Part shown: piece after piece, positions 185 through 42,012 of the stretch | Layout: each line of letters opens with the position of its first letter | Position numbering within the stretch: the first letter of the stretch is position 1 | NCBI RefSeq assembly: GCF_030814715.1 | Contig: NZ_JAUSVO010000006.1 | Coordinates: 248,001-312,000 of the forward strand | Length of the DNA: 64,000 nucleotides | Direction of reading: 5' to 3' | Origin: Kaistia dalseonensis | Lineage (GTDB): Bacteria; Pseudomonadota; Alphaproteobacteria; Rhizobiales; Kaistiaceae | Position numbers and translations under genes: made by a program | The notes under the pieces: generated by a model | Seen by the model: only the letters and a program-made list of their open reading frames with translations | Databases searched by the model: none | What the model was told of the DNA's origin: nothing

Positions 185-1855
185 TCAGATATTGCCGTGA
201 ATCAGCCGTTCGGCCGCGGCGCGTGCCTCGTCGGTAATCACGCTGCCGGCCAGCATGCGGGCGATCTCCTCGCGGCGATCAGGACCGGCCAGCGGCTTGA
301 CACCCGTCGCGACACGCTCCTCGCCGGCGACCCCCTCCTTGGCGATCAGCATATGGCTGCCCGCCCGCGCGGCGACCTGCGGCGCATGCGTCACGGAGAG
401 AACCTGCACCCGCTCGGCCAGCCGCGCGAGGCGCTTGCCGATCGCCTCGGCGACGGCTCCGCCGACCCCCGTATCGATCTCGTCGAAGACGAGCGTGGGC
501 GCGGAGCCGCGATCGGCGAGCGCGACTTTGATCGCGAGCAGGAAGCGCGAAAGCTCGCCGCCGGACGCGACCTTCATCATCGGCCCGGCGCGCGTGCCTG
601 GATTGGTCCGCACGAAGAAGGAGACGATATCGATGCCGCTTTCGCTGCGCGCCTCGGCATCGCTCTCGATCGAAACGATGAAGGCGGCACGCTCGAGCTT
701 CAGCGCCGGCAACTCCTCGGCGACACGCACCTCCAGATCCGCCGCTGCGCCGCGCCGACGGGCCGAGAGAGCCGCCGCCCGGGCGTCGAAGGCCCGCTGC
801 GCCGCTTCAGCCGCCGCTTCCAGCGCCGCGAGACGCTCCTCGCCCGAATCGAGCGCCGCGAGATCCGCCGTCATGCGGTCCCGAAGCGCGATCAAACCCT
901 CGACGGGGACATCGAATTTGCGCGCAGCACCACGCAGCGCAAAGAGCCGCTCCTCGGTCCGCTCGAGTTCCTTCGGATCGAAAGCACTCTCGCGAATGCT
1001 GCGGGTCAGGATCGTCTCGGCCTCTTCCAGCGCGTCGATCGCCTGGTCGATCGCCTCGACCACGCCGTCGAGCAACCCGCCCGCCTGATCGCGCTTGCGC
1101 TCCAGACGCCGTGCCAGGCTTGCCAGCGTCGGCACGGGCGAGGAGGAGCCGGCGATCGTGTCATGCGCGTCGGCCAGATCGCCCGCGACCTTTTCCGCTT
1201 GCATCATGTGGTGGCGCTGTTCGGCGAGTTCGGTTTCCTCGCCCGGCTGCGGCGCAAGCTTCGCCAGTTCCTCGACCGAGGCACGGAGGTAATCGCCCTC
1301 GCTGCGCGCGGAGCTGATCCGCCGCCGCAGCGCCGTGACTTCGCTCTCTGCCTTGCGCCAGGCGCGATAGGTGTCGGCGACGCCGGCCACCTCGCCATCC
1401 AGCCCGCCGAAGACATCGAGCAGGTTGCGATGAATGGCCGGATCGACGAGCGCGCGGTCGTCATGCTGGCCGTGGATCTCGACCAAGGCGGCGCCGACAT
1501 CGCGCAGGAAGGCGACGCTCACTGGCTGATCGTTGATGAAGGCGCGCGTGCGGCCGTCTTCGGTCTGCACGCGGCGCAGGATGATGCCGCCATCATGATC
1601 GATGGCGTTGCCGTCGAGCAGGCTGCGCGCCGGATGATCGGCCGGAACCTCGAACACGGCCGTGACCTGGCCCTGATTGGCGCCATGGCGCACCAGCCCG
1701 CCATCGCCGCGCCCGCCGAGCGCCAGCGACAGCGCATCGAGCAGGATCGACTTTCCGGCGCCCGTCTCGCCCGTCAGCACGGTCATGCCGGGCGCGAAGG
1801 CAAGCTTGAGCCGATCGATCAGAACGATGTCACGGATCGACAGCTCAGCAAGCAT
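185..1855 (-). CDS. recN: DNA repair protein RecN
   Basis: SMC-like ATPase that acts early in double-strand break repair. The 556 residues match the usual RecN length. The N terminus opens with the family pattern LAELSIRDIVLIDRL and carries the Walker A motif GETGAGKS near residue 32. Near the C terminus are the signature ASGGELSRFLLAIK and the Walker B stretch LVFDEIDTGVGG. The region between is predicted coiled coil, rich in Glu, Ala and Arg. The start is ATG with GAGAGG just upstream. The gene follows bamD after 18 bases and is probably the last gene of the bamD transcript. It acts in the cytoplasm on the nucleoid. Confidence 0.96.
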   Translation of the reverse strand: MLAELSIRDIVLIDRLKLAFAPGMTVLTGETGAGKSILLDALSLALGGRGDGGLVRHGANQGQVTAVFEVPADHPARSLLDGNAIDHDGGIILRRVQTEDGRTRAFINDQPVSVAFLRDVGAALVEIHGQHDDRALVDPAIHRNLLDVFGGLDGEVAGVADTYRAWRKAESEVTALRRRISSARSEGDYLRASVEELAKLAPQPGEETELAEQRHHMMQAEKVAGDLADAHDTIAGSSSPVPTLASLARRLERKRDQAGGLLDGVVEAIDQAIDALEEAETILTRSIRESAFDPKELERTEERLFALRGAARKFDVPVEGLIALRDRMTADLAALDSGEERLAALEAAAEAAQRAFDARAAALSARRRGAAADLEVRVAEELPALKLERAAFIVSIESDAEARSESGIDIVSFFVRTNPGTRAGPMMKVASGGELSRFLLAIKVALADRGSAPTLVFDEIDTGVGGAVAEAIGKRLARLAERVQVLSVTHAPQVAARAGSHMLIAKEGVAGEERVATGVKPLAGPDRREEIARMLAGSVITDEARAAAERLIHGNI

Positions 1856-1873
1856 GGAATGCCTCTCGGCCGA

Positions 1874-2740
1874 TCAGCCCGTTACGACCTTGAACGCCTT
1901 GCTCATCCACGAGCCCTCGTTCTCCTGAGGCTTCACGCCGCCCGACTGCAGCAGCGAATAGGCGTCCTTGTACCAGCTCGAATTCGGGAAGTTGTGTCCG
2001 AGCACGGCGGCCGCCGTCTGGGCTTCCTGCACGATGCCCATCGCCAGATAGGCCGATGTGAGACGATAGAGCGCCTCTTCGACCTGACGCGTATTGGCAT
2101 ATTGCGTCACAACGATCTTGAAGCGATTGATCGCAGCCGGATATTCGCGCCGCTCCAGATAATAGCGACCGATCTGCATCTCCTTGCCGGCGAGCTGGTC
2201 GCGGGCAATGATGATGTCGCGCTGTGCATCGTCGACATATTCGGAGGTCGGGTACTTATCGATCACCTCCTGCATTGCCTGCAGGGCGCGCTGCGTTGCG
2301 TCCTGATCGCGCGTCACGTCCGGGATCTGCTTGAAGTAGGACTGGCCGATCATGTACTGCGCGTAACCCGCATCCGGGCTGCTCGGATAGAGCGAGATAT
2401 AGCGCTTCGCAGCCGAAACGGTCTCGTCGTAATTGCCGAGGCGGTAATTGGTGAAGGCGCTCATGATCAGCGCCTTGCGGGCCCACTCCGTGTAGGGATG
2501 CTGCTTGTCGACTTCGTCGAAGCGCGCGGCCGCCTGCTTGAGCTTGCCGTTCTGCATCAACGCCAGCGCCTGATTGTAGAGCTGACCGGCCGGAATGTCG
2601 GGCTCGTCGACATCGTCCTTTTTCGTCAGGCATCCCGCCAGTGCGATCATGGAGCAGAGCACGATCGCACGGATCGCGACGGAAGCCGCACGACCGAAAG
2701 TCGGGCGAGCGAAGGAACGGGTCTGACCGGCTGCGTTCAT
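1874..2740 (-). CDS. bamD: Outer membrane assembly lipoprotein BamD
   Basis: Essential lipoprotein of the Bam complex, which inserts beta-barrel proteins into the outer membrane. The chosen start gives 288 residues with a short signal segment and a lipobox (IALAGC). The mature chain is a series of TPR-type helical repeats, with motifs such as LYNQALALMQNGKLKQAA and the conserved AGYAQYMIGQSYF. An upstream in-frame ATG at 2815 would add 25 basic residues before the signal peptide, so I prefer 2740. No strong ribosome site is visible for either. It lies between lpxC, after a gap of about 200 bases, and recN. The same genome region encodes an autotransporter, one kind of Bam client. Confidence 0.93.
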   Translation of the reverse strand: MNAAGQTRSFARPTFGRAASVAIRAIVLCSMIALAGCLTKKDDVDEPDIPAGQLYNQALALMQNGKLKQAAARFDEVDKQHPYTEWARKALIMSAFTNYRLGNYDETVSAAKRYISLYPSSPDAGYAQYMIGQSYFKQIPDVTRDQDATQRALQAMQEVIDKYPTSEYVDDAQRDIIIARDQLAGKEMQIGRYYLERREYPAAINRFKIVVTQYANTRQVEEALYRLTSAYLAMGIVQEAQTAAAVLGHNFPNSSWYKDAYSLLQSGGVKPQENEGSWMSKAFKVVTG

Positions 2741-2937
2741 TAACAAATCGAGCCGGCGGGACCGGCCTCGCCTCTTTCGACGGGTCAAAGCGTGCAGTTT
2801 CTTACCGGAAACCACGGCATCCTGTCACCAGCCCTGCCAGCGCATTGGCGCATTTTCGTGGCGAGCGGAGGGACCAACGCAATAAACCTGCTTCATCTGA
2901 AAAATCAGCAGCTTACTGCGTCCAAAAGGTCGCGCTA

Positions 2938-3897
2938 TCAGGATTTGTCGGGACCAAATGCGGCCGCTTCGAGCCGAACGGGCATCTCGGCGCGAATCGG
3001 CCCGCGACGAACGGAAGCCGCGTTGTCGACGAACGTCCAAGCCTCGGGATCGGCGAGAAGCGTCTCGACGATCTTCGCGTTCAGGCGGTGGCCACCGCGA
3101 TAGGACCGGTAGCAGCCAATGACGGGCGCACCGGCCAGTGCCAGATCGCCGACCGCGTCGAGCGCCTTGTGGCGCACGAACTCGTCGGCAAAGCGAAGCC
3201 CTTCGGGGTTGAGGACGCGGTCCTCACCGAGCACGACGGTGTTATCGAGCGAGGACCCGAGGGCGAGGCCCCGCGACCAGTAGAACTCGACATCGCGCAT
3301 GAAACCGAATGTGCGCGCCCGCGCCAGATCACGGCGGAAGGCCGACGGCGTCAGGTCGACGACGAAAGCCTGGCGGCCGATCAGCGGCGATTCGAAATCG
3401 ATCTCGATCTCGAAACGTCGGCCGTCATGCGGCAGCAACTCGGCGAAGGCGGAGCCCTGCTCGACCCGGATCGGCTTCAGCACCTTAATGGCGCGGCGCT
3501 TCGCGGGGAGCGTCATGATGCCCGTCTGGTCGACGAGCGCGACGAAAGCCTCGGCGCTGCCATCCATCATCGGCACTTCGGCGCCGTCGATCTCAACGAC
3601 GACATTGTCGATGCCGAGACCGTTGAACGTCGCCAGGAGATGTTCGATCGTCGCGACCGACAGGCCCATGGAAGCGATCGTCGTGCAGGAATCGGTGGCG
3701 TGGAGATGCTGGATCGTGGCGCTGATCGCGACCGACACCGAACCGGATGTGTCGGTGCGCTGGAACACGATGCCCGTATCGGCCTCGGCCGGATTGAGGA
3801 TCATGGAAACGGCACTACCGCTATGCACACCGATACCGGAGACCACAACGCGATCGCGAAGCGTGGTCTGTAGCGTGCTCTGCTGTCTTGCCATCAA
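2938..3897 (-). CDS. lpxC: UDP-3-O-acyl-N-acetylglucosamine deacetylase LpxC
   Basis: Zinc enzyme of the committed step of lipid A synthesis. It removes the acetyl group from UDP-3-O-acyl-GlcNAc in the cytoplasm. The 319 residues match the family. Visible hallmarks are GIGVHSG near residue 21, the zinc-ligand segment ATIEHLLATFNGLGIDN near residue 82, and the second ligand pair in FVRHKALDAVGDLAL near residue 235, which gives the His and Asp ligands. The position downstream of ftsZ is conserved in proteobacteria. A terminator-like hairpin between ftsZ and lpxC suggests lpxC also has its own promoter. Confidence 0.97.
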   Translation of the reverse strand: MMARQQSTLQTTLRDRVVVSGIGVHSGSAVSMILNPAEADTGIVFQRTDTSGSVSVAISATIQHLHATDSCTTIASMGLSVATIEHLLATFNGLGIDNVVVEIDGAEVPMMDGSAEAFVALVDQTGIMTLPAKRRAIKVLKPIRVEQGSAFAELLPHDGRRFEIEIDFESPLIGRQAFVVDLTPSAFRRDLARARTFGFMRDVEFYWSRGLALGSSLDNTVVLGEDRVLNPEGLRFADEFVRHKALDAVGDLALAGAPVIGCYRSYRGGHRLNAKIVETLLADPEAWTFVDNAASVRRGPIRAEMPVRLEAAAFGPDKS

Positions 3898-4104
3898 TGT
3901 GCCCCAAACGAGCTTGTCAAAATACGCGACTACCTGCCGTTCCCGCCCCTCGCTTCGGAACCAAAACCGGGATTGACGGGCCTTCAGGCTCTCTGTCGAA
4001 TCACCAGATTCCTCAGCATCTTGCGAGGCTGAAGATAGGGCTGGACCAACCGGTCAACAAATCACGCTTTCTAACCGTCTGTAACGCATCGACCCCCTTA
4101 CGAA

Positions 4105-4139
4105 ACGAGGCCCGGCGGGGGTCAGTCGCCGGGCCTCGT
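4105..4139 (-). terminator. Rho-independent terminator after ftsZ
   Basis: A 12-bp GC-rich stem (arms about 4106-4117 and 4128-4139) with a 10-base loop lies just beyond the ftsZ stop. Read on the minus strand it is followed by TTTCGTAAG. It should end most ftsZ transcripts before lpxC. Confidence 0.75.
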
Positions 4140-4159
4140 CTCGATGGAGTTACTGGCTT

Positions 4160-5917
4160 CTAGTTCGCCTGGCGGCGCAGGAAAGCCGGAATCTCCAACT
4201 GATCGTCATCGTGGCGCTGCTCGCGCGGCATCACGCGGCCATGCGGGTCGAGCTCCTGCTGGCGGGGGCGGTAATTGGCCTCCGGAGCGGGTGCGGGAGC
4301 CTGCTGACGCGGAGCCGCCTGCTGCGGGCGCTGCTGCTGATAGCCGGCGGGCGCCTGCTGCTGCGGTGCACGCGGCGCCTGCTGCGGCGCGCGGGCCGGC
4401 TGGGGAGCCGAAACGCGGACCGGGGCAGGCTGCTGGGCCTGCGGCTCTTCCTCGCGACGGCCGAGGCCGACATGCGCCAGGCGGCGCAGCAGGCTCATCG
4501 GGCCGCGATCTTCCTCGTGATGTTCCTCGCCACGCTGCTGCGCGATCTCGCGCTGGGCCATGACGGGGAAATCCTCGACGCGCGGCATGCGGTTCGCAGC
4601 CGGAGCCTCGGCGGCCGGCGGAATGAAGTGCTGCGCCGGAGCGTGGTCGACGACCTGGGTCGGCTGCGGGACCATGTCGAACTCGTGATCGAGTTCGGCT
4701 TCCGCATAGGACATGGACGGCTGCGGCGCCATCGGAGCGATGGTGACGCCCGGATCACGCGCCGACGGCTGTTCGGCATAGGACTGGGCCGGGGCCGGCT
4801 GGCGGAAGGTCGGGGCCGGAGCGGCACGCGATTCCGTATTGACCGAAGGCGTACGCTGAGCCGGCTGGGCGGCAGCCTGCGCGGCGGCCTTCATGCGCTG
4901 GTTCATCTCGGCGATGCGCTGGTCGGAGGGAGGTGTCTCCTGCTCGCGGACATCGCTGTCGATGCCGGTCGCGACGACCGACACGCGGATGACGCCCTCG
5001 AGACTTTCCTCGAAGGTGGCGCCGAGAATGATGTTCGCGTCCGGATCGACTTCCTCGCGGATACGGGTCGCGGCTTCGTCGACTTCGAACAGCGTCAGGT
5101 CACGTCCGCCGGTGATCGAGATCAGCAGGCCACGCGCACCGTGCATCGACGTCTCGTCGAGCAGCGGATTGGCGATCGCGGCTTCGGCCGCCAGAATGGC
5201 GCGGCGATCGCCCGAGGCTTCGCCCGTGCCCATCATCGCCTTGCCCATCTCGCGCATCACCGAACGGACGTCGGCGAAGTCGAGATTGATCAAGCCTTCC
5301 TTGACCATCAGGTCGGTGATGCAGGCGACGCCCGAATAGAGCACCTGGTCGGCCATCGAGAAGGCGTCCGCGAAGGTCGTCTTCTCATTGGCGATGCGGA
5401 ACAGGTTCTGGTTCGGAATGACGATGAGCGTATCGACGCTCTCCTGCAGCTCCTTGATGCCGGCCTCGGCGACGCGCATGCGCCGCGCGCCTTCGAACTG
5501 GAACGGCTTGGTGACGACGCCGACGGTCAGGATGCCGTGCGAACGTGCCGTCCGCGCGATGACCGGGGCAGCGCCCGTGCCCGTGCCGCCGCCCATGCCG
5601 GCGGTGACGAACACCATGTGCGAGCCGGCGAGATGGTCGTTGATCTCGTCAATGACCTCTTCCGCGGCGGCGCGGCCGACATCCGGCATGGAACCGGCGC
5701 CGAGACCCTCGGTCACGGCGACGCCCATCTGGATGAGCCGCTCGGCGCGCGACGATGTCAGCGCCTGGCTATCGGTGTTCGCGCACACGAACTCGACACC
5801 CTCGAGTCCCGAGCGGATCATGTTGTTGACGGCGTTTCCACCCGCACCGCCAACGCCGAAGACCGTGATCTTGGGCTTCAGCTCAGTAATATCCGGCATC
5901 TTCAGGTTGATCGTCAT
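4160..5917 (-). CDS. ftsZ: Cell division GTPase FtsZ
   Basis: Tubulin-like GTPase that forms the cytokinetic ring. The GTPase core covers about residues 15-325, with [17 protein letters not shown] at the start and the tubulin signature GGGTGTG at 109-115. The T7-loop region [11 protein letters not shown] follows in the middle of the protein. The 585-residue length is typical of Hyphomicrobiales FtsZ, which carry a long disordered linker. Here the linker is rich in Gln, Pro and Ala (about 330-570) and has several runs of RAPQQ type. The protein ends with the conserved tail IPAFLRRQ, which binds FtsA. It follows ftsA after 97 bases and a terminator hairpin follows the gene. Confidence 0.98.
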
Positions 5918-6014
5918 TGGTGACCTCGTCGTCTGACCCCTGTGGCCGGTGGCGTAAACCGGCCGTCTTTCCGTTCTTCGGCATCGCTTCGCCAGGAGCG
6001 TTGCCGTCTAACCC

Positions 6015-7337
6015 CTAGAAACTCTCGCGAAACCAGCTTCCGAATCGGGAGAAGTATCCCCCGGTCCCGGTCATGGCCAAGCGATGTCCGCGCATTGCCG
6101 AGACCTGCTCGATCTGGGCGACCTGCGGATAAATCAACAACCCGACGGCAGCCGAGAATGCCGGCCCCTTGGCCGCTTCCGGCAGACCCGTCACACCGAG
6201 CGGACGACCGAGGCGCACATTGCGCGCCAGGATGCGCCGCGCAGCCTCCGTGATTCCCGTAAGCTGACTCGCGCCGCCCGTCAGCACGATCCTGCGGCCA
6301 ACCATCGTCTGGAAGCCGGACGCATTGAGGCGGTCGCGGACGAGTTCGAGGATTTCCTCGATGCGTGCCCGGATGATCCGCGTCAGCGCCGCGCGCGGCA
6401 TCTGGTTCGGCACATCGCGCTCATCGTCGCCGATCGGCAGGACCGACAGGATGTCGCGCTCGTCCGACACGCTCGGCAGCGCGCTGCCATGCATGGTCTT
6501 CAGCCGTTCCGCATCCTCGATCCGGGTGGAGAGGCCGCGGGCGATATCCGTCGTCACATGCTGGCCGCCGATCGCGATCGCGTCGGCATGGACGAACTGG
6601 CCGTCCATGAACACCGAGATCGTGGTCGTGCCGCCGCCGAGATCGACACAGGCGACGCCCAGTTCGGTCTCGTCGTCGACCAGAGCCGAAAGGCCGCTGG
6701 CATAGGGCGTCGCGACCATCGCCTCGACCGAAAGATGGCAGCGGGCGATGCAGAGCTCGAGATTGCGCAGCGGGGCGGATTCGCCGGTGACGACATGCAT
6801 GTCGACGCCAAGCCGCTCGCCCATCATGCCGCGCGGATCGCGGATACCGTTATTGCCGTCGATGGCATAGCCGATCGGCAGCGAATGGATGACCGAGCGC
6901 TCGGCGGTGACCGAATGCTCACGCCCGGCCGCCAGCACGCGCTTGATGTCGGCCTCGACCACTTCATGGCCCGAGAGGGAGACGCTGGCCGAGAAGGATT
7001 CGCTGGCGAGCCGGCCACAGGACACGTTGACGATCAGCGATTCCACGGTGACGCCGGCCATGCGCTCGGCCGCGTCGACCGCAAGGCGGATCGCCTGCTC
7101 GGCCTTGTCGAGATCGACGACGACGCCAGACTTGATCCCGCGCGAACGCTGGTGGCCGATGCCGAGCACCTCGACCGCATGGGTGCGGCCCGGCAGCACG
7201 TCGCCGGTCTCGCGCGGCTTCAGCCTTGCGATCAGGCAGCAGATCTTCGAGGAACCGACGTCGAGAATGGAGACGACGGTGGACTTCTTGGCCGGAAGCG
7301 GACGCATACGGCTATCTGAGGATACGAAAAGCGACAT
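6015..7337 (-). CDS. ftsA: Cell division actin-like protein FtsA
   Basis: Actin-fold ATPase that tethers FtsZ to the inner membrane. It has 440 residues. The first phosphate-binding segment VVSILDVGSSKICCLIA is near residue 21, and the second nucleotide segment VACVDLGGGTTTISVF is in the middle. The last residues, YFSRFGSWFRESF, look like the membrane-binding amphipathic helix. The start codon shares one base with the ftsQ stop (TGATG), so the two are probably translationally coupled. Confidence 0.97.
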   Translation of the reverse strand: MSLFVSSDSRMRPLPAKKSTVVSILDVGSSKICCLIARLKPRETGDVLPGRTHAVEVLGIGHQRSRGIKSGVVVDLDKAEQAIRLAVDAAERMAGVTVESLIVNVSCGRLASESFSASVSLSGHEVVEADIKRVLAAGREHSVTAERSVIHSLPIGYAIDGNNGIRDPRGMMGERLGVDMHVVTGESAPLRNLELCIARCHLSVEAMVATPYASGLSALVDDETELGVACVDLGGGTTTISVFMDGQFVHADAIAIGGQHVTTDIARGLSTRIEDAERLKTMHGSALPSVSDERDILSVLPIGDDERDVPNQMPRAALTRIIRARIEEILELVRDRLNASGFQTMVGRRIVLTGGASQLTGITEAARRILARNVRLGRPLGVTGLPEAAKGPAFSAAVGLLIYPQVAQIEQVSAMRGHRLAMTGTGGYFSRFGSWFRESF

Positions 7338-8245
7338 CAGGTGCTCGCCCCCTTACGCTTGGCGAGCTTGTCGCGCTCCTTGAGTTCGGCCGCGCGGCGC
7401 TCCATCGCGGCCGGCGAAAGCCGGACGAACATGCGGTCACCGAGGCGGAGATCAACCCGCACGATGTCGCGCGAGAGCAGTTCGTCGCTCTTGTCGAAAT
7501 TCTCGATGCGGGCCAACGCGCCCTGGGGATTGTCCTGCGGCAGCATCAGCGTGACGCCGTTGTCGAGGATGAAATCCCAGCGCCGCTCACCGACCAGCAC
7601 GGCCGCCTTGAGACGGGCACGGATCGCCGGTGCGCTGTCGGCGAGAGCCAACGCTTCGCTCGCACGCGTCTCGGCGCCCTGCCCGATCACGCGGACCAGA
7701 TCACCATAGGACTGGTCGCCGGCCTCGCCAATGACCCGGCCATGATCGTCGATGACCGAGAGCTTCTGGTCGTGTTGCCAGAGGACGAAGGGCTTGCGCT
7801 CCTCGATCGTGATGTTGAGCGTGGCCGGATAGACCTTGCGCAGCGTCGCCTTCGCCACCCAGGGCAGCGTCTCGATCCGGTCGCGGGCCGACGCCACGTC
7901 CAGGAAGGGCAGCGATGCGTCGGGCGGCAGTTGCAGCTTGTCAAGCACGGAAACCTCCGAGGTCTCCATCTGCCCGGTGATCTTGACGGAATCGATCAGC
8001 AGACCGCTCGCGGCGCTGACGCCACCGAAGACTTCGTCGAGGCGATCGGCCGCGATCACGCCGGTGACACCGGTCGCGACGAAGAGCAGGATCGTGGCCT
8101 TGAGGCCGACATGGCGCGGAAGACGCGCTTCCACGCGTTTCAGGCCCCGCAAGCGTCGATTGAGCCACAAGCCGAGCCTGGCCCCTGACGAAACCGCCTC
8201 GTCGGCTGCCCCGCCTTCCACCTGCCCCATGGCTCGCCGGCTCAT
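7337..8245 (-). CDS. ftsQ: Cell division protein FtsQ
   Basis: Bitopic divisome protein that links early and late division proteins. I place the start at ATG 8245, where it overlaps the ddl stop as ATGA, giving 302 residues. A longer reading frame upstream only shadows ddl. A basic cytoplasmic tail (1-48) precedes one membrane helix at about 49-66. A POTRA domain follows from about residue 85 (IDSVKITGQ) to [10 protein letters not shown], then the beta domain. The C terminus is charged ([11 protein letters not shown]). The neighbours ddl and ftsA overlap it by 4 and 1 bases. Confidence 0.95.
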
Positions 8246-9165
8246 CTGCCGCAAGACGCGTCCTCCACCATCCAACTGACCAGCGCCGGGAAGTCCATTC
8301 CGGCATGTCGCGCCATATCCGGGACCAGAGACGTCTCCGTCATGCCCGGCTGAGTGTTCACTTCGAGACAGACGAGTTGCCCCGTGCCCCCCGGTCGATC
8401 GTCGTATCGGAAGTCCGCCCGGCTGATGCCGCGACACCCGAGAGCCTGATGCGCCCGCACTGCTAGATTCCGTATACTTTGGTAAATATTTGGTGAAAGC
8501 GGCGCAGGAATTATGTGGCGGGCACCGTCGGCGGAATACTTGGAATCATAGTCGTACCAGCCGCCGTCGGCGGTCTCGAGCTCAATGATATCAAAGGCTT
8601 CGTCGCCCTTGACGCCACAGGTGAGCTCGCGTCCCCCGACGTAACGTTCGACCATGACGATGTCGCCGAAGCCCCAGTCATCCGCAAAAAGTTGTTGAGG
8701 CGGGTAAGCCGCATCCTCGCGCACGATCAAGACGCCGAAGCTCGACCCTTCGGCGACGGGCTTCACCACATAGGGCGGCTCCATCGGATGGGCCCTGGCG
8801 ACATCGAGGCGGTGCATGAGGACAGATTCGGCGACCGGAATGCCGGCCGCCTTCATGACGTCTTTAGCCCGCGCCTTGTTCATAGCGAGCGCCGAGGCGA
8901 GCACGCCGGAATGTGTATAGGGGATGCCGAGGATCTCGAGCACGCCCTGCATGCAGCCATCTTCACCGAAGGGACCGTGCAGCGCGTTGAACGCGACATC
9001 GGGCTTCAGTTCGGCGAGGACCGAGGCGATGTCGCGCTGGACGTCGACGCGCGTCACCTTGTAGCCGGCCGTTTCCAGCGCATCGGCACAGCCTATGCCC
9101 GAATTAAGCGACACCGGCCGCTCGGTCGACCAACCGCCCATGAGGACAGCGACGTGCTTCGCCAA
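8242..9165 (-). CDS. ddl: D-alanine--D-alanine ligase
   Basis: ATP-grasp enzyme that joins two D-alanines for the peptidoglycan stem peptide. The 307 residues are normal for the family. Visible motifs are [15 protein letters not shown] at the N terminus, the substrate loop [15 protein letters not shown], and the metal/ATP motif EVNTQPGMT near the C terminus. The start is TTG with AAGGA nine bases upstream. No ATG exists in a sensible position. In relatives ddl directly follows murB, but here about 6 kb of other genes come between, so ddl-ftsQ-ftsA-ftsZ must rely on a promoter downstream of that block or on read-through. Confidence 0.96.
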
Positions 9166-9261
9166 GACGAGATTCCTTCGTTCGAATCAATTGGAAGGAA
9201 TATGCCAGCGAAGAGGTAAGGAAACGTTAACCAGATGCGCCGCGCACCGAGGCAAAATGAC

Positions 9262-10173
9262 TCAGCGCGGGACAACCGCCTCGGGCGCCACGGCGAAGGC
9301 CGCCTTTTCGCGCTGAAACAGGTCGATCAGGAACTCCCGTGCATGCCGGACGGGCGAGGCAGCGAGGCCATCACGCCGCGTCAGCAGCCAGAGTTCGCGC
9401 GTCGGCGGCGTCACGCCGAGATCGATCGGAACCAACCCCGGCTCCGTGCGTCCGAGAAAGCACGGCAGGAGCGCGACGCCGCAGCCTGACCGCGCCGCGA
9501 TCGCCTGCGAGAGTTGGCTGTTGGAGCGGAACACCAGCCGCGCCGTCGGAAACCGGCCCGCGAGCCAGACAGCCTCCGGCAGATGAACGCTCGATTCGTC
9601 GAAACCGACAAAGAGCGGCGCTCCGCCGGCGGCAAGCCGTGCCAGCCAGGATGGATCGGCGTAGAAGCCGAACGCGATCGTCGCGACATGGCGGGCGATC
9701 AGATCGCCATCCGAGGGCCGCGCCAGCCTCAGGCCGATATCCGCCTCGTGACGCGAGAGGCTGACGCTGCGCCGATCGGCGAAGACCTCGACATCGATCT
9801 CGGGATGGGACGCGCGGAACGCCGCCAGGCGTGGGATGAGGAAGGCATCGGCGAGGCTCGGCGTCGCGGTGATGCGCACAAGGCCGCCCTGCGGCGCTCC
9901 GGCGGCGATATGGGCCAGTCCTTCTGCCGCGGCATCCATCGCCCCGGCAGCCGCCAGGGCGCCCTGCCCGGCCTCGGTGAGCTCATGACCATGCAGCCGC
10001 CGCTCGAACAGCTTCGCGCCAAGCGCCGTCTCCAGCGCGGCGATGCGGCGCGCCACCGTGGCATGGTTCACGCCAAGGGCGCGGGCGGCCGCCGAATAGC
10101 TGCCATGGCGGACGAGCGCGGTGAAGAAACGCACGTCCTCCCAGTCCAGCCTTGTGCGATTTCGATCGGCCAT
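9262..10173 (-). CDS. LysR-family transcriptional regulator
   Basis: 303 residues with the standard LysR layout: a winged helix-turn-helix at about 10-68 (TALVRHGSYSAAARALGVNH) and a substrate-binding domain from about 95 to the end. It is divergent from the metallo-hydrolase gene at 10260, with 86 bases between them. By analogy with most LysR pairs it probably controls that neighbour and itself. The inducer cannot be predicted. It is part of the block that splits the dcw cluster. Confidence 0.93.
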   Translation of the reverse strand: MADRNRTRLDWEDVRFFTALVRHGSYSAAARALGVNHATVARRIAALETALGAKLFERRLHGHELTEAGQGALAAAGAMDAAAEGLAHIAAGAPQGGLVRITATPSLADAFLIPRLAAFRASHPEIDVEVFADRRSVSLSRHEADIGLRLARPSDGDLIARHVATIAFGFYADPSWLARLAAGGAPLFVGFDESSVHLPEAVWLAGRFPTARLVFRSNSQLSQAIAARSGCGVALLPCFLGRTEPGLVPIDLGVTPPTRELWLLTRRDGLAASPVRHAREFLIDLFQREKAAFAVAPEAVVPR

Positions 10174-10176
10174 TGC

Positions 10177-10196
10177 GCGAATTTAGCGAATTTCGC
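10177..10196. promoter_or_regulatory. Candidate LysR operator
   Basis: An imperfect dyad with GCGAA and TTCGC as outer arms sits four bases upstream of the LysR start, in the divergent intergenic region. Position and symmetry fit an autoregulatory LysR site. The inner bases are not symmetric, so the call is weak. Confidence 0.3.
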
Positions 10197-10259
10197 TCAG
10201 GCCTCACAGTCCTATCCTCCGGCCATCAACCGACATCCCACCCGCTCCGGAGCAACGTC

Positions 10260-11051
10260 ATGACTGCCCACGACCTGACCCTCACGCTGATCGGTGGTCC
10301 GACCGTCCTGATCGAGATTGGCGGGCTGCGCCTGCTGACCGACCCGACATTCGACCCGCCCGGCCATTATCATTCCGGCCCGGTCCATCTTGAGAAACAG
10401 AGCGGGCCGGCCCTTGCCCCCGACGCGATCGGCCCGATCGATGCGATCCTGCTCAGCCACGACCAGCATGCCGACAATCTCGACCATGCGGGCCGCGCCT
10501 TCCTGGCCCACGCCCCGCTCGTGCTCACGACGCGGATCGGCGCGGGCCGTCTCGGCGGCCATGCCCGGGGGCTCGATCCATTCGAGACCATCACGATCGG
10601 CGGGACCGATGGCCAGAGCACCCTCACCATCACGGCAGCGCCCGCGCGACACGGCCCGGCGGGCATCGAGCCGATAGCGGGCGATGTAATCGGCTTCCTG
10701 ATCGGCCAGGAGCAGCCCGGCGACACGCTCTACGTCACCGGCGACACCGTCTGGTATGACGGCACGGCCGAGATCGCCCGCCGCTACGCGCCGGCCGCCG
10801 TCATCGCCTTTGCGGGCTCGGCCGAGCCTCGCGGACGCTTTCACCTGACCATGGACAATAACGACGTCATCGAGACCGCCAGCGCCTTTCCCCGCGCCCG
10901 CATCATCGCCGTCCACAATCATGGCTGGGCGCATTTCAAGGAGAGCGAGGCCGACCTGGTCGCGGCCTTCACCGCCCTCGGCATTGCCGATCGCCTGACA
11001 TCGCTCGCTCCGGGCGTGCCGACGCGCCTGCCGCTCGGGCCTGCGAGCTGA
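10260..11051 (+). CDS. MBL-fold metal-dependent hydrolase (UlaG-like)
   Basis: 263 residues from ATG 10260, which has GGAG nine bases upstream. A longer frame starting at 10152 overlaps the LysR gene and has no ribosome site. The fold is metallo-beta-lactamase. The metal-binding loop reads LLSHDQHADNLDHAG (about residues 63-77), and further likely ligands are AARHG, VTGDTVWYDG and VHNHGWAHF. The pattern is closest to the UlaG-like branch, whose members are varied hydrolases. I cannot name a substrate. No signal peptide is seen. It is probably regulated by the divergent LysR gene. Confidence 0.88.
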   Translation: MTAHDLTLTLIGGPTVLIEIGGLRLLTDPTFDPPGHYHSGPVHLEKQSGPALAPDAIGPIDAILLSHDQHADNLDHAGRAFLAHAPLVLTTRIGAGRLGGHARGLDPFETITIGGTDGQSTLTITAAPARHGPAGIEPIAGDVIGFLIGQEQPGDTLYVTGDTVWYDGTAEIARRYAPAAVIAFAGSAEPRGRFHLTMDNNDVIETASAFPRARIIAVHNHGWAHFKESEADLVAAFTALGIADRLTSLAPGVPTRLPLGPAS

Positions 11052-11068
11052 ATACCACCCCAAACGAA

Positions 11069-11092
11069 AACGGCCCGCCGAGGCGGGCCGTT
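11069..11092. terminator. Shared bidirectional terminator
   Basis: 11-bp perfect arms (11069-11079 and 11082-11092) lie between the convergent hydrolase and autotransporter genes. The minus-strand product is followed by TTTTCGTTTGG, so it works best for the autotransporter. The plus side has only a short TT. Confidence 0.75.
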
Positions 11093-11113
11093 CGATCGTG
11101 TTGATCGCCTGGA

Positions 11114-14100
11114 TCAGAAGCGCACTTCGCCGGTGACCTTCACCGCATTCGAATCCGCATTGCTGGCGAAGGAGCCCGAATAGACCACGCCGAGGCTGAC
11201 CCGCTGGTTGAAGGCGAGGTCTGCGCCGGCCTCGACGAGGAGCGAGTCCTGCGCGATCGGCGTGCCGATCACGGTGAAGCCCGTGGCGGTGTTGTTGAAC
11301 AGCATCGCCGCCTCCGGCGGGACGTCGTCGAACGCATGCCGCCAGCCGAGCATGGCGCGCGGCGTCAACCGGTTTCCGTCCACGAGGAAATCGGTCGAGA
11401 AGCGGGCGCCGAGCGTCGAATAGGCGGTGCTGTAGGAAGCACCCGACGAACTCAGCCCCGTCAGCACGGCAGCGGTTTCCGAGAAGCTGTCGCCATTGAC
11501 GCTGACCCAGCCGAGACCGGCATAGGGCTCGATGATCGAGCCGCCGACCTTGGCGTCATAGGCGACCTCGCCGAAGACGTTGCCGGTCGTCGCGTCATAA
11601 TTCGCCTGCGGCCGTTCCGTGACGCCACCGGCCGTCGCGGTGCGCGTGGTGTCGATCGAGCTCCAGCCCATCGACGCGCCGCCCCGCAGCTTGACCGCAT
11701 CGAGCGCGACGCCGCCATAGACTGCCAGCAGGGCCGTGTCGATATCGGCCGAACTCGACCAGTTCGACGTATCAGCCGAGCCCCAGCTATAGCCGCCCGC
11801 GAGACCGAAGGTGTAGTTGTCGTTCGAAAGATCGGCACCGACCAGGGCGCCGCCGACGCTCGAATCCGTATTCGCGCTATTGCCGTCGCCGTCGCGGTTG
11901 AGCCAGGAACCGAACGCCTGGGTCCAGCCGGAATAGTGCGGGCCGGAGGCTTCGAGCGCATCGAAGGCGGCGGTGTTGGGCTTCGCCTCCTCGCCATAGC
12001 CGAGCTTCTGGCTCGGCGCCGCGGTCTTGCCGGGCACGCCAATCTGGCGCAGGCGCTGCAGCAGCGTCAGCTCCGTCTGCATCGACTGGTCGAGCAGCGT
12101 GCCGACGAGATCGGCGTGGATCTCGCCCGAAAGCGAATCATAGGTCTGCGGCAGGAAGGCGCCCGTCGTGCTGTTCGCGATCAGATTGTAGAGCCCGCTG
12201 GCACTGGTGCCGGCGTCGAGCGCATTGGCGACAGCCCACTGGTTCGCAGTCTGGGCGAAGCTCGCAAAGGGCACGCCATTGCGATCGAGCGTGATCGTGA
12301 CGGCATTCGGCTCCATGCCGAGTTGAGGCGTGATGAACAGCGTGCTCGGCGCCTGAAGCGACGAGAAGCCGCTTCCGGTCACGCCGCCGTCAGCGGACAC
12401 GATCGTCGCCTTGGTGCCGACGACATAGGGACCGGGCGCGAGATCGAGCACGACCGTGCCGCCATTGACCGCCGCTGTGCCGGAAACCGCGAGCCGGTTC
12501 GACGCGCCATCGGCCGCCATGCCGACCATGAAGGTCGCGTCGTTGAGGCTGGCATCGCCGTTGACGGAGAGCGTACCGCTCGTTCCGGTGCCGGGCACGA
12601 TCACGGCGCCGAGCCCCGTGGTCACCAGGCCCGAAACGCTGCCGCTTCCGGAAAGCCGGGCGCCACCCTGGACGGTCGTCACCGCGGAGAGCGTGGTGTT
12701 CACCGCAAGCGAGGCACCCGAATAGACCGTGACGCCGTCCGAATAGGACTGGTCGTCGCCGAAGGTCCAGTTGCCCTGACGGATCCCGAGCGTCTCGAAG
12801 GCGCTGACGCGCGACAGCGTCGCGACGTCGGATGACGAGGACCAGACGGAGAGGGAATCAGATCCATCGCCGCCATCGAGCGTGCCAGCGATCGACGAGC
12901 CATCATGCAGCTCGACCGTATCGTCGCCCGATCCCATCGCGACATTGCCGCCGATCGCACCCGAATTGATCAGCCAGTCCTTGCCATAGCTGAACGAGAC
13001 ATCGCCGGCGATGGAGCCGGAATTGGCCAGCACGTCGTCGCCGCCGGCAAAGGAAACCTTGCCGCCGATATTCCCCGCGTTGAGCGTGACGCTCGCCCCG
13101 TGCTCGACGCGGACGTCACCGCCGATGGCGCCTGTGTTGAACAGGAAATTGCCGCCGACGACATCCCCGCCGATGGTGCCGGAATTGGCGAACCAGCCCA
13201 TGCCCCAATCGGCTGATACGCTGCCGCCGATCGAACCGGAATTAGCCAGCAGGCCGAAGCCGCTTCCGAACGCAATGTTGCCGACAATCGCCCCGGAATT
13301 GCTGACCAGATCGGTGCCACGGCCGAGCCAGATATCGCCGCCGATCCAGCCCTCATTGTGCACGGTGTCGTCGCCATTGCCGCCGGCCACGTCGCCGAGG
13401 ATCGCTCCGCTATTGTCGAGCACGTTCCGGCCGTTGCCCAGCGCGACGTCGCCGCCGATCCAGCCGGAATTGTCCACCTTGTCGTCGCCAGAACCGGCAG
13501 CCACATCGCCGCGGATCACGCCGCTATTGTCGAGCGAGTTCCGACCCTTGCCCAGCGTAACGTCGCCGCCGATCCAGCCGGAATTGTCCACCTTGTCATC
13601 GCCCGAGCCGGTAGCCACATCGCCGAGGATCGCTCCGCCATTGTCGACCCTGTTCCGGCCATTGCCGAGCGTAACGTCGCCGCCGATCCAGCCAGAATTG
13701 TCCACCTTGTCGTTGCCGTCGCCGGCAGTGACGCCGCGGAGGATCACGCCATCATTGTCCAGCGAATTCCGGCCGCCGCCGAGGGTGACTTTCCCGGCAA
13801 TCCAGCCGTCGTTCCTGACCTTGTCGTCGCCAGCGCCAGCGGCGACGTCTCCGAGGATCGCGCCGCCATTCTCCAGTGTGTCGTTGCCTGAACCCAGATC
13901 GACGCTGCCGCTGATCCAGCCCCAGTTCTTCACCGTGTCCGAACCGCCGCCCATGTCGACATCGCCGACGATGAAGCCGTAATTCTTGAGTGTGTCGGCG
14001 AAATCACCGCGCAGCGTGATGGCCTCTCCAATATCACTGACGATAGCGCCCGCATTGGTGATCGTCGTCGCGCCATAGGCCGAGCCGCCATCGCTGTCGT

Positions 14101-40370: not shown

Positions 40371-40383
40371 GCTGAACAATCAC

Positions 40384-40425
40384 CGGCCGCTCGGCACGAG
40401 GCTGCATGCTTCCAACGAGCGGCCG
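40384..40425 (+). terminator. Stem-loop after the oxoprolinase gene
   Basis: A perfect 10-bp stem (CGGCCGCTCG at 40384-40393 with its complement at 40416-40425) has a 22-base loop, 14 bases past the stop. There is no T run, so termination is uncertain. It may protect the mRNA end. Confidence 0.4.
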
Positions 40426-40489
40426 CTGGCGGTTCCCGTCGACAGGCGTCATGAGCCCGAAACCCCGACTGAGCCCTGGCCGGCGCCGA

Positions 40490-40518
40490 TTGTGCGGCAT
40501 CGGGCAAGGCGCTAGAAT
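40490..40518 (+). promoter_or_regulatory. Candidate promoter of the protease module
   Basis: TTGTGC at 40490-40495 and TAGAAT at 40513-40518 are separated by 17 bases, a good sigma-70 fit. The start of transcription would fall about 25-30 bases before the protease ATG. It suggests the two-gene module is transcribed independently of the oxoprolinase. Confidence 0.5.
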
Positions 40519-40551
40519 GCGCGGTGTTTCGCTCGCACTGCGAGGGCGTCG

Positions 40552-41523
40552 ATGCGCTTCTCGACGGACGATCTGGACAAGATTCTCCCTCGGGATCTTC
40601 CTCCCCTCGCGGCGGTTCCCGGCGTGGTGGTCGCTGCCTATGACGAGCTCACCGAAGGCGACCATGATCCGCTGATACGGCGCTCCGCCTTCTGGACCCA
40701 TGCGATCTTCGCTGCCCTGCGTCGCCGGAGCTGGTCCTTCGCGCCCGAGCGAGAGATACCGCCCCTCCTTGCGACCGCCTTTGGAGCGGACGGGTTCGGG
40801 CCCAATGCGACACTCTCCGTCGGCGCGCTCGATCCGGATTTCGAGGAGGAGGCCTTCGGCCTTGTGCTGACGCTGCCGCACGAGCGGGAGTCGGCGGTCA
40901 TCGGCACGATCTCGCTGCCGGAATTGAACGATGCGCGCTTTCCCGTCGCGGTGCGCGCCCTGGCGGAGGAACCGCATGCGGCGCCTTCGCTTCCCAACGC
41001 CACCACGACCTGCTGGGCCGAGGACGCCCTGTCGCCCGGTCGATGGGGCTTCGTCACCTGCAGCCATGCCCTGGCAGGCGTCGCCACCGGTGCCAGCGTG
41101 CCACTCGTCGGCGGCGGCCATGGCACCGTATTGCGCAAGGGCTGGCCCTTGATCGATGCGGCGCTCGTTCAGAGCGCGTCACCGACCAGCATTCTCGCGC
41201 CGCTGCCGCTCGTCAGTTTCCCGACAACCGGACTGACGCTGAGCGTCCATTGCGGCAGTGGCGCGGTGAGCCGCACGGTTGTCGGCGTGACCAACACGCT
41301 CGGCGTCCTCGGCGATCCGCATCATCCCATCAAGATCTATACCGACACGCCGTGCACCCCCGGCGACTCGGGCTCGCTCATCACCAGCGCGGGCGATGGC
41401 GCTGCCATCTATTGCGGCGCGCTGTCGGGCGCCACCGTCGGCGGAACCGGCGGGCAGACCGTCGGCTTCGCCCAGCACCTCGAACAGGCGGCGATCATCC
41501 TGGATTTCAAGCCATTTCAGTGA
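40552..41523 (+). CDS. Trypsin-like serine protease of a conflict-type module
   Basis: 323 residues. The second half has the chymotrypsin-fold triad: His172 in FVTCSHALAG, Asp202 in WPLIDAALVQ and Ser273 in TPGDSGSLI. The first 150 residues form a separate domain I do not recognise (MRFSTDDLDKILPRDLPPL, FWTHAIFAAL, LPHERESAVIGTISLPEL). No signal peptide or membrane helix is seen, so it is probably cytoplasmic, which is unusual for trypsin-like proteases in bacteria outside the HtrA group. The ATG has GAGGG upstream. A Trypco1/Pepco-like gene follows after 10 bases. Together they resemble the protease cores of predicted NTP-regulated conflict systems, but no NTPase gene is next to them. Confidence 0.8.
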   Translation: MRFSTDDLDKILPRDLPPLAAVPGVVVAAYDELTEGDHDPLIRRSAFWTHAIFAALRRRSWSFAPEREIPPLLATAFGADGFGPNATLSVGALDPDFEEEAFGLVLTLPHERESAVIGTISLPELNDARFPVAVRALAEEPHAAPSLPNATTTCWAEDALSPGRWGFVTCSHALAGVATGASVPLVGGGHGTVLRKGWPLIDAALVQSASPTSILAPLPLVSFPTTGLTLSVHCGSGAVSRTVVGVTNTLGVLGDPHHPIKIYTDTPCTPGDSGSLITSAGDGAAIYCGALSGATVGGTGGQTVGFAQHLEQAAIILDFKPFQ

Positions 41524-41533
41524 GGAGGACGAC

Positions 41534-41911
41534 ATGGCGAAGAATGCGACCAAGGCCAAGGCGAAACCCGGTTGGGAGATGACGATCCTGGCCCCCGCGG
41601 GCACGGAGGAGACTGTCCCGACCGGTAAGGGCTCGTCGGAGTTTCACAGCAAGGGCCTGATCGCCGGGATCTTCGGGGGCGAGGAAGTGCCGCTCGACGC
41701 GGCACAAACCGAGGAGACCACCACGCAATGGACCCAGACGGTCACCGGACTGCTCGCCACGGTGAACCAGTGGAGCAGCGCTGCCACGGCGAAATGGAAG
41801 ATCGACGAGGTCACCGTCGGGCTGACACTGAGCGCGGAGGGCAAGCTGCTCTTCATCGCCAAGGGCAGCGCCGAGGCCAGCATCGAGATCAAGCTCAAAT
41901 ATCTCGGCTGA
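41534..41911 (+). CDS. Trypco1/Pepco-like small protein
   Basis: 125 residues with a very good ribosome site (GAGGAGG). A basic Ala-Lys N tail (1-12) leads into a domain ending IDEVTVGLTLSAEGKLLFIA and then EASIEIKLKYL. That layout, a helix (QTVTGLLATVNQW) followed by an IDEV strand and alternating strands, resembles the trypsin-co-occurring (Trypco1) or peptidase-co-occurring (Pepco) domains. These are known mainly as partners of peptidases in predicted conflict systems. It lies 10 bases after the protease gene in the same direction. I recognise it by pattern and context, without a profile search. Confidence 0.65.
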   Translation: MAKNATKAKAKPGWEMTILAPAGTEETVPTGKGSSEFHSKGLIAGIFGGEEVPLDAAQTEETTTQWTQTVTGLLATVNQWSSAATAKWKIDEVTVGLTLSAEGKLLFIAKGSAEASIEIKLKYLG

Positions 41912-41988
41912 CGGCTCGGCGCCCGCGCTGGCTTCACCCATGGCGCCACGGGGCAAACGCATTCGGCCCCGCGTGCCTTTGGCTTTGA

Positions 41989-42005
41989 GCCGCCTTCGGC
42001 GGGGC
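41989..42005. other. UUCG-type hairpin between convergent genes
   Basis: A short CCGCC/GGCGG stem closed by a C(TTCG)G-like loop lies between the Trypco1-like and oxidoreductase genes. No T run follows on either side. It may be a weak transcript end. Confidence 0.25.
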
Positions 42006-42012
42006 CTACGCC

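What the first reader, a model, noticed from the sequence alone, without database searches (positions are those of the whole stretch)
40490..41911. Stand-alone cytoplasmic trypsin-like protease plus Trypco1/Pepco-like protein
Seen: a complete His172/Asp202/Ser273 triad, no signal peptide, an unrecognised 150-residue N-terminal domain, a 125-residue partner gene 10 bases downstream with a strong ribosome site, and its own candidate promoter. Known: trypsin-fold proteases with Trypco1, Trypco2 or Pepco partners form the core of predicted NTP-regulated conflict systems, usually with STAND NTPases. Inference: here the pair stands without an NTPase, so it may be a minimal protease-based immune or stress module with a new sensor domain at the protease N terminus.
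Basis: partly seen in the sequence, partly recalled or inferred. Interest (0 to 1): 0.85.

Follow-up and report, generated by a model that had tools for sequence, protein, structure and literature searches.

The report
Acquired two-gene protease module
A bacterium carries, at a spot where close relatives have nothing or other genes, a small two-gene cassette that makes an internal protein-cutting enzyme and a little partner protein of a type also found beside other kinds of hydrolase, which suggests, without proof, a minimal immune or stress switch.

Summary
The window encodes a 323-aa protein with a His172/Asp202/Ser273 triad and no signal peptide, then, 10 bases on and behind a strong ribosome site, a 125-aa protein over the Pfam cut-offs of both Pepco (39.4 bits) and Trypco1 (34.9 bits). 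The pair alone fills a 1.6-kb insertion: in six same-genus genomes the flanking genes are adjacent, and in two others different genes sit there, in one a membrane pYEATS protein. The insertion holds no NTPase gene.

The protease matches no family or structure library by sequence. The N-terminal region aligns too, so it is probably a shared domain. Other Pepco genes stand beside patatin, CHAT and caspase enzymes. A partner that also serves a lipase is more likely a regulator or adaptor than a protease substrate.

Verdict: a real, horizontally acquired, NTPase-free hydrolase-plus-Pepco module, a new variant of a known kind. Immune role and inhibitor model are inference. Structure prediction failed (pLDDT 33 and 43).

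The parts
40371..42012 (.). inserted interval between the conserved hydantoinase/oxoprolinase gene and the alcohol-dehydrogenase-like gene
   Evidence: flanks adjacent (about 20-240 bases between aligned ends) in six same-genus genomes, different cargo in two others
40490..40518 (+). candidate promoter TTGTGC-17-TAGAAT
   Evidence: 8 of 12 consensus bases, only site of its grade in the window (criterion set afterwards); missed by the stricter scan
40552..41523 (+). 323-aa trypsin-like serine protease, apparently cytosolic
   Evidence: open frame and triad; remote full-length relative
40552..40974 (+). N-terminal domain, residues 1-141, no known family
   Evidence: no Pfam or NCBIfam match; aligns with the same region of the G1116 protease, 0 of 1022 natural control segments as good, 12 of 1000 shuffles as good
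40975..41520 (+). trypsin-like catalytic domain, residues 142-323; His at 41065-41067, Asp at 41155-41157, Ser at 41368-41370
   Evidence: motifs; triad aligned with His481/Asp521/Ser597 of the relative
41522..41528 (+). strong ribosome-binding site GAGGAGG of the partner gene
   Evidence: sequence
41534..41911 (+). 125-aa Pepco/Trypco1 partner protein; domain at residues 50-123
   Evidence: Pfam Pepco 9.3e-10 and Trypco1 2.5e-8, both over cut-off; NCBIfam CU044_2847 family 2e-7

Best explanation
A horizontally acquired two-gene module made of a cytosolic trypsin-fold protease and a Pepco/Trypco1 partner. Shown: the two genes, their adjacency, their joint presence at a variable site, the membership of the partner, the absence of an NTPase gene in the insertion, and a remote relative with the same layout. 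Inferred: the partner, probably made in excess because its ribosome site is the stronger, binds the protease, perhaps through the N-terminal domain, and keeps it off. Infection or stress breaks or remodels this complex, and the freed protease then cuts cell proteins and stops growth. About 0.9 that this is a trypsin-like protease working with a Pepco partner, 0.6 that it is a conflict (defence) module, 0.4 that the partner is an inhibitor rather than an activating adaptor.
For: Pfam hits of the partner over both cut-offs. Triad. Flanks adjacent in six same-genus genomes and other cargo in two, one a pYEATS protein at 4.3e-16. Remote protease in G1116: 78 identities over 295 aligned residues, global score reached by 0 of 1000 shuffles and 0 of 1022 other segments, triad in register, Pepco-like gene overlapping its stop codon. 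That relative gives a weak Trypsin_2 match (0.0021, below cut-off) and a local score to one true trypsin, L045, reached by 5 of 500 shuffles, the links to the trypsin fold. Of seven other Pepco loci, six have a same-strand hydrolase gene directly adjacent: patatin 1, CHAT 2, caspase with iHD-CE 1, iHD-CE 1, trypsin-like 1; the seventh, G1040, below cut-off, was dropped as false by eye. A partner that serves a lipase as well as proteases cannot always be a protease substrate.
Against: No Pfam, NCBIfam, PADLOC, PHROGs or PDB sequence match for the protease (one search lists three unrelated chains at E 1-1.7). HMM-HMM comparison gave under 3% probability, with trypsins and with the relative. The local score of 57 with the relative was reached by 6 of 1000 shuffles and 8 of 959 other segments (at least three of the eight lie in loci fetched because they resembled the protease). 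The N-terminal part alone is weaker against shuffles (12 of 1000 global, 32 of 1000 local). The relative against the other two trypsins scored at shuffle level. The relative was found through its Pepco-like gene, which is itself below the Pepco cut-off (23.4 bits against 27), so its adjacency is not independent. AlphaFold models were useless (pLDDT 33.2 and 42.7). Nothing here tests function, and an NTPase elsewhere in the genome was not sought.
Confidence: 0.6

Rival explanations
1. The partner is the protease's substrate: a pro-effector that is cut and thereby switched on, like the gated nucleases of nuclease-protease pairs.
For: Protease-activated partners are reported for Hachiman and AVAST (PMC12799240, abstract and passages read). 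The two genes are adjacent.
Against: The same partner family stands beside a patatin lipase, which would not cut it. The partner is small and its only matches over a curated cut-off are Pepco, Trypco1 and CU044_2847; PHROGs gave two weak hits of unknown function.
Confidence: 0.15
2. The partner is an activating adaptor or sensor that recruits the protease to an NTPase-type core encoded elsewhere in the genome; the module is an effector supplied in trans.
For: Trypco1 genes elsewhere sit with trypsin-NACHT-FGE proteins or with a trypsin in what looks by eye like a MoxR operon (Kaur et al. 2020, passages read).
Against: The inserted interval holds only the pair. Of 14 neighbouring ORFs scanned, 10 had Pfam matches, none to an NTPase, vWA or STAND family, and 4 had no match (not every ORF of the window was scanned). 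The genome has one Trypco1 and one Pepco match, both this gene.
Confidence: 0.25
3. A housekeeping stress protease with a partner chaperone, kept for proteostasis, not for conflict.
For: No defence genes among the neighbours scanned: methionine synthase, catalase, extensin-like and similar.
Against: Found in 1 of 28 genomes of its family, its own, at a site with variable cargo; housekeeping genes are rarely so patchy (general knowledge).
Confidence: 0.15
4. The protease is catalytically dead or the frame is a relic; the triad motifs are chance.
For: No family match.
Against: Intact frame with coding-like composition, rare motif order (16 of 300,000 shuffles), triad kept in the relative.
Confidence: 0.05

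Closest known systems
Trypco1-trypsin pairs of VMAP MoxR-vWA ternary systems (Kaur et al. 2020, PMC7159879, passages and section 33 read) and trypsin-NACHT-FGE proteins seen here (L041, L043)
   Same: small Trypco1-type protein encoded next to a trypsin-like peptidase
   Different: no MoxR, vWA, VMAP or STAND gene in the insertion; the protease has its own N-terminal domain and scores at shuffle level against the three trypsins tested
Other Pepco loci: patatin (G635, L032), CHAT (G1055, L068; Streptomyces NBC_01006 plasmid, L083), caspase with iHD-CE (Azospirillum brasilense plasmid, L082), iHD-CE (G1173, L069)
   Same: Pepco gene adjacent to and on the same strand as one hydrolase-type gene
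   Different: hydrolase type; the iHD-CE versions are large multidomain proteins, with weak ATPase-like matches in L082, and there the Pepco gene comes first
DUF11-hydrophobic segment-protease plus Pepco-like gene of G1116 (L070)
   Same: N-terminal domain, triad, downstream Pepco-like gene
   Different: adds a DUF11 part and two hydrophobic segments, so probably membrane-anchored; 78 of 295 aligned residues identical
Nuclease-protease pairs of Hachiman, AVAST, Lamassu and DRT (PMC12799240, abstract and passages read)
   Same: trypsin-like protease with a paired gene
   Different: their partner is an MBL nuclease and the protease is fused to a defence enzyme
EACC1 two-gene systems (PMC7159879 section 33 read)
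   Same: two genes, constant small component plus a peptidase gene
   Different: EACC1 has a conserved membrane helix; this partner has no such stretch

Membership tests
Pepco (PF24393) | profile score over curated cut-off | tested here: met
   39.4 bits against 27, residues 50-123, profile 39-110 of 112
Trypco1 (PF19493) | profile score over curated cut-off | tested here: met
   34.9 bits against 24.6, profile 31-96 of 98; first 30 positions not matched
Trypsin-like (PA clan) serine protease | His-Asp-Ser triad in order with GDSG-type motif | tested here: met
   in register with the relative
Trypsin-like (PA clan) serine protease | match to a trypsin profile (PF00089, PF13365) | tested here: not met
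   no Pfam match at E up to 1 for the whole protein or up to 10 for its two halves; the relative matches Trypsin_2 at 0.0021, below cut-off
Trypsin-like (PA clan) serine protease | double beta-barrel fold | tested here: inconclusive
   single-sequence AlphaFold model, pLDDT 33.2; no fold search run
Trypco1-trypsin NTP-dependent conflict system | MoxR-vWA-VMAP or STAND NTPase in the same locus | tested here: not met
   insertion holds only the pair; 14 neighbouring ORFs scanned, 10 with other matches, 4 with none
Nuclease-protease pair | MBL nuclease partner | tested here: not met
   partner is Pepco/Trypco1, 125 aa
EACC1 two-gene system | membrane helix in the small component | tested here: not met
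   highest 19-residue hydropathy 1.04
Anti-phage defence system | protection against phage | not testable with these tools
   no experiment; no PADLOC match

The most novel reading that the evidence does not exclude
Pepco is a general control partner for cell-damaging hydrolases (trypsin-like, CHAT, caspase, patatin), and this pair is a minimal NTPase-free form: a protease held silent by a Pepco protein and released by infection, working like a toxin-antitoxin pair in which the toxin is a protease.
Probability: 0.33. Interest if true: 0.75.

Novelty: new variant of a known kind. Interest (0 to 1): 0.52.

Why it matters
Trypco1 was named for the genes it sits beside (PMC7159879, passages read); Pepco's name suggests the same, and I found no stated function for either. 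A free-standing pair bounded by an empty-site comparison reduces the question to two proteins, without the NTPase machinery. The patatin and CHAT neighbours say the partner is not specific to trypsins, which points to regulation or recruitment of hydrolases. The probably shared N-terminal domain is a concrete candidate for the docking site.

Tried and rejected
Relatives of the protease: found in 1 of 61 relatives, 1 of 385 genomes of the class and 1 of 28 of the family, each time its own genome. Plasmids: none at E 0.01, two hits at E 4 and 9 taken as chance. Phages: none. Viral contigs: no pattern match; three motif scans gave 0, 0 and 1 stretch, the one read in frame and unrelated. Genome contigs: 52 pattern matches, none confirmed; a motif scan gave 14 stretches, read in frame, none a relative. 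In 149 genomes of the phylum of G921, 11 had matches at E 0.002-0.07 (13 matches, 10 fetched); the alignments are partial and I judged them chance by eye. The partner had no plasmid match. The G1116 protease found nothing in plasmids, phages or viral contigs, nor did the two-sequence alignment in viral contigs (67 pattern matches, none confirmed).

G1040's Pepco-like match (22.2 bits, below cut-off) lies in a longer frame beside what looks by eye like YidC and was dropped as false without a scan. Trypco1 loci L046, L047 and L048 were read as ORF lists only. The MAFFT alignment A3 put the catalytic His out of register; I used a BLOSUM62 global alignment instead. Fold searches were not run because both models were too poor. 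No clear boundary repeats were seen at the insertion (short repeats only), and no transposase gene lies in it.

Control caveats: the 1022 segments overlap, include orthologues of the same flank genes, and include loci picked for similarity to the protease. The triad control used 600 of the 1022.

Literature searches: Trypco1 (2 papers), Pepco with peptidase (1, unrelated), trypsin-co-occurring (1), CU044_2847 (0), pYEATS (0), HD-CE or Calcineurin-CE (31, the 10 listed unrelated), two combined searches (8 and 0 papers). These searches turned up no description of a Pepco-patatin or NTPase-free Pepco-protease pair; most subscription papers are not held.

Full report
What was claimed and what is there. 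The finding describes a stand-alone trypsin-like protease and a Trypco1/Pepco-like partner at 40490-41911. The protease frame is 40552-41523 on the + strand, 323 aa, with H172, D202 and S273 exactly as stated. The partner frame is 41534-41911, 125 aa, 10 bases downstream, behind GAGGAGG. In Pfam the partner hits Pepco (9.3e-10, 39.4 bits, cut-off 27) and Trypco1 (2.5e-8, 34.9 bits, cut-off 24.6) over residues 50-123 and 52-123, and NCBIfam's CU044_2847 family. The protease itself matches nothing in Pfam, NCBIfam, PADLOC or PHROGs, and nothing credible in the PDB by sequence.

Is the triad more than chance? A pattern with the right residues, order and spacing, written after seeing the protein, occurred in 16 of 300,000 shuffles of it. 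The codon-position composition fits coding in both frames. The promoter is only suggestive: the tool's scan found none, but TTGTGC-17-TAGAAT at 40490 is the only site of its grade in the window (criterion chosen afterwards).

Boundaries. Seven same-genus genomes with the dehydrogenase orthologue were first compared. In six of them (G005, G006, G007, G008, G010, G011) the hydantoinase and dehydrogenase genes are neighbours with roughly 20 to 240 bases between aligned ends. In G001 the gap holds a 235-aa protein with a pYEATS domain (4.3e-16) and two N-terminal hydrophobic stretches by eye. A wider look added G013, where about 3 kb hold a PqqD-like gene with a weak HPr-kinase match and an NTP_transf_5 gene. 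In the other five same-genus genomes (G002, G003, G004, G009, G012) no dehydrogenase orthologue lies in the stretch fetched. So of 14 genus genomes, counting this one, three carry three different cargoes at one site, six are empty and five are not comparable. Of the 14 genomes of other genera in the family, one (G015) has the two flank genes side by side; the others showed no dehydrogenase match in the stretch fetched, two of which were cut short by contig ends. The insertion in the window contains the pair and no other gene, which is the strongest evidence that the two genes are a complete transferable unit. Its GC content is that of its surroundings, and no clear repeats mark its edges.

How rare is it? 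The protease was found in 1 of 61 relatives, 1 of 385 genomes of the class and 1 of 28 of the family, each time its own genome, and in no plasmid, phage, viral contig or genome contig searched. Trypco1 and Pepco each match once in the genome, both times this gene.

A remote relative. Pepco searches gave 1 of 199 relatives, the own genome, 2 of 398 genomes of the phylum, one of them own, 0 of 7 genomes behind loci, and 4 of 296 genomes of the phylum of G921 with 2 over cut-off. G921 is the genome of a locus titled Marmoricola, an actinobacterium by my own knowledge. I read the neighbours. In G1116 the Pepco-like gene is below the Pepco cut-off (23.1 and 23.4 bits against 27). The gene before it encodes 659 aa: a hydrophobic start, a DUF11 domain (7.1e-23), a proline-rich linker, a second hydrophobic stretch, then about 330 residues with a weak Trypsin_2 match (0.0021, below cut-off). 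Those 334 residues align with the window protease from end to end: 78 identities in 295 aligned positions. The global score was reached by 0 of 1000 shuffles and by 0 of 1022 other 334-residue segments; the N-terminal part alone by 0 of 1022, the protease part alone by 1 of 1022; the triad falls in register, as it did in only 2 of 600 control alignments. Against this, the local score was reached by 6 of 1000 shuffles and 8 of 959 segments; the N-terminal part alone was reached by 12 of 1000 shuffles in global and 32 of 1000 in local mode; and HMM-HMM comparison gave probabilities of about 1 to 3%. Three Trypco1-linked trypsins, a patatin and a CHAT protein scored at shuffle level against the window protease; the G1116 protease resembled one of the three trypsins (L045, 5 of 500 shuffles) and not the other two. 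I read this as real but remote homology. The partner of G1116 is 32% or 21% identical to the window's, depending on the alignment (blastp over 36 residues, 14 identical, 3e-6 in a one-sequence comparison). Its likely start codon overlaps the protease stop. Because G1116 was found through Pepco, the adjacency is not an independent count; the likeness of the protease is.

What the partner goes with. Seven other Pepco loci were looked at; G1040, below cut-off, was dropped as false by eye. In the other six the neighbour is a same-strand gene of a hydrolase type: patatin in G635 (1.9e-37; also a PADLOC phospholipase effector match), CHAT in G1055 and in a Streptomyces NBC_01006 plasmid, caspase with iHD-CE in an Azospirillum brasilense plasmid, iHD-CE with a caspase-like start seen only by eye in G1173, and the trypsin-like gene of G1116. 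The two plasmid loci came from tblastn with two of the other Pepco proteins. Trypco1 gave 8 of 329 genomes, 7 over cut-off, this one included in both counts. Of five neighbouring proteins scanned, three held a trypsin domain: two trypsin-NACHT-FGE proteins and one separate trypsin followed by genes that look like a MoxR operon by eye; the other two were CHAT and TIR proteins on the opposite strand. This agrees with Kaur et al. 2020 (PMC7159879; passages and section 33 read), which places Trypco1/2 with trypsins in ternary systems; the word Pepco does not occur in its main text. Doré-type DGR loci with Trypco1 adapters are described in PMC10907252 (passages read).

Mechanism. A partner that serves a lipase as well as proteases is unlikely to be simply a substrate. 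A regulator or recruiting adaptor fits better. In the window, and in the patatin and Streptomyces CHAT pairs, the partner gene follows a strong ribosome site, which would favour excess partner. I therefore propose that the partner holds the protease off, perhaps through the N-terminal domain, and that infection or stress releases it. Every step after 'two genes that travel together' is inference. The substrate model has a precedent in nuclease-protease pairs (PMC12799240; abstract and passages read), and trypsin-like peptidase activity is reported as needed for lysis by the Caulobacter LypABC system (PMC13236601; passages read). Both keep proteolysis in bacterial immunity plausible; neither tests this pair.

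Limits. Both AlphaFold jobs ran without an alignment and failed (pLDDT 33.2 and 42.7), so neither fold is confirmed and no complex was modelled. An NTPase acting from elsewhere in the genome was not sought. Not every ORF of the window was scanned.

Noticed in passing
L032 (G635) 7289-11693, - strand: Patatin-like phospholipase followed 44 bases later by a Pepco gene, preceded by three genes that overlap or nearly touch (two scanned in Pfam and PADLOC without a match, the 136-aa one not scanned); looks like an uncharacterised lipase-based operon.
   Followed up: partly
L028 (G001) 4523-5230, - strand: At the same chromosomal site as the window's pair, a same-genus genome carries a pYEATS protein with hydrophobic N terminus; the site looks like a small variable-cargo spot.
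   Followed up: partly
L117 (G013) 1192-3551, + strand: Same site, third cargo: PqqD-like gene with a weak HPr-kinase match overlapping an NTP_transf_5 gene.
   Followed up: partly
L082 (Azospirillum brasilense plasmid NZ_CP059450.1) about 4956-9853, + strand: Pepco gene, not in the plasmid gene table, overlapping a 1527-aa protein with caspase and iHD-CE domains and weak ATPase-like matches.
   Followed up: partly
L070 (G1116) 3600-7002, - strand: DUF11 part joined through a hydrophobic segment to an N-terminal domain plus trypsin-like protease, then a Pepco-like gene, then a 307-aa protein of unknown family; could be an outside-sensing version of the window's module.
   Followed up: partly
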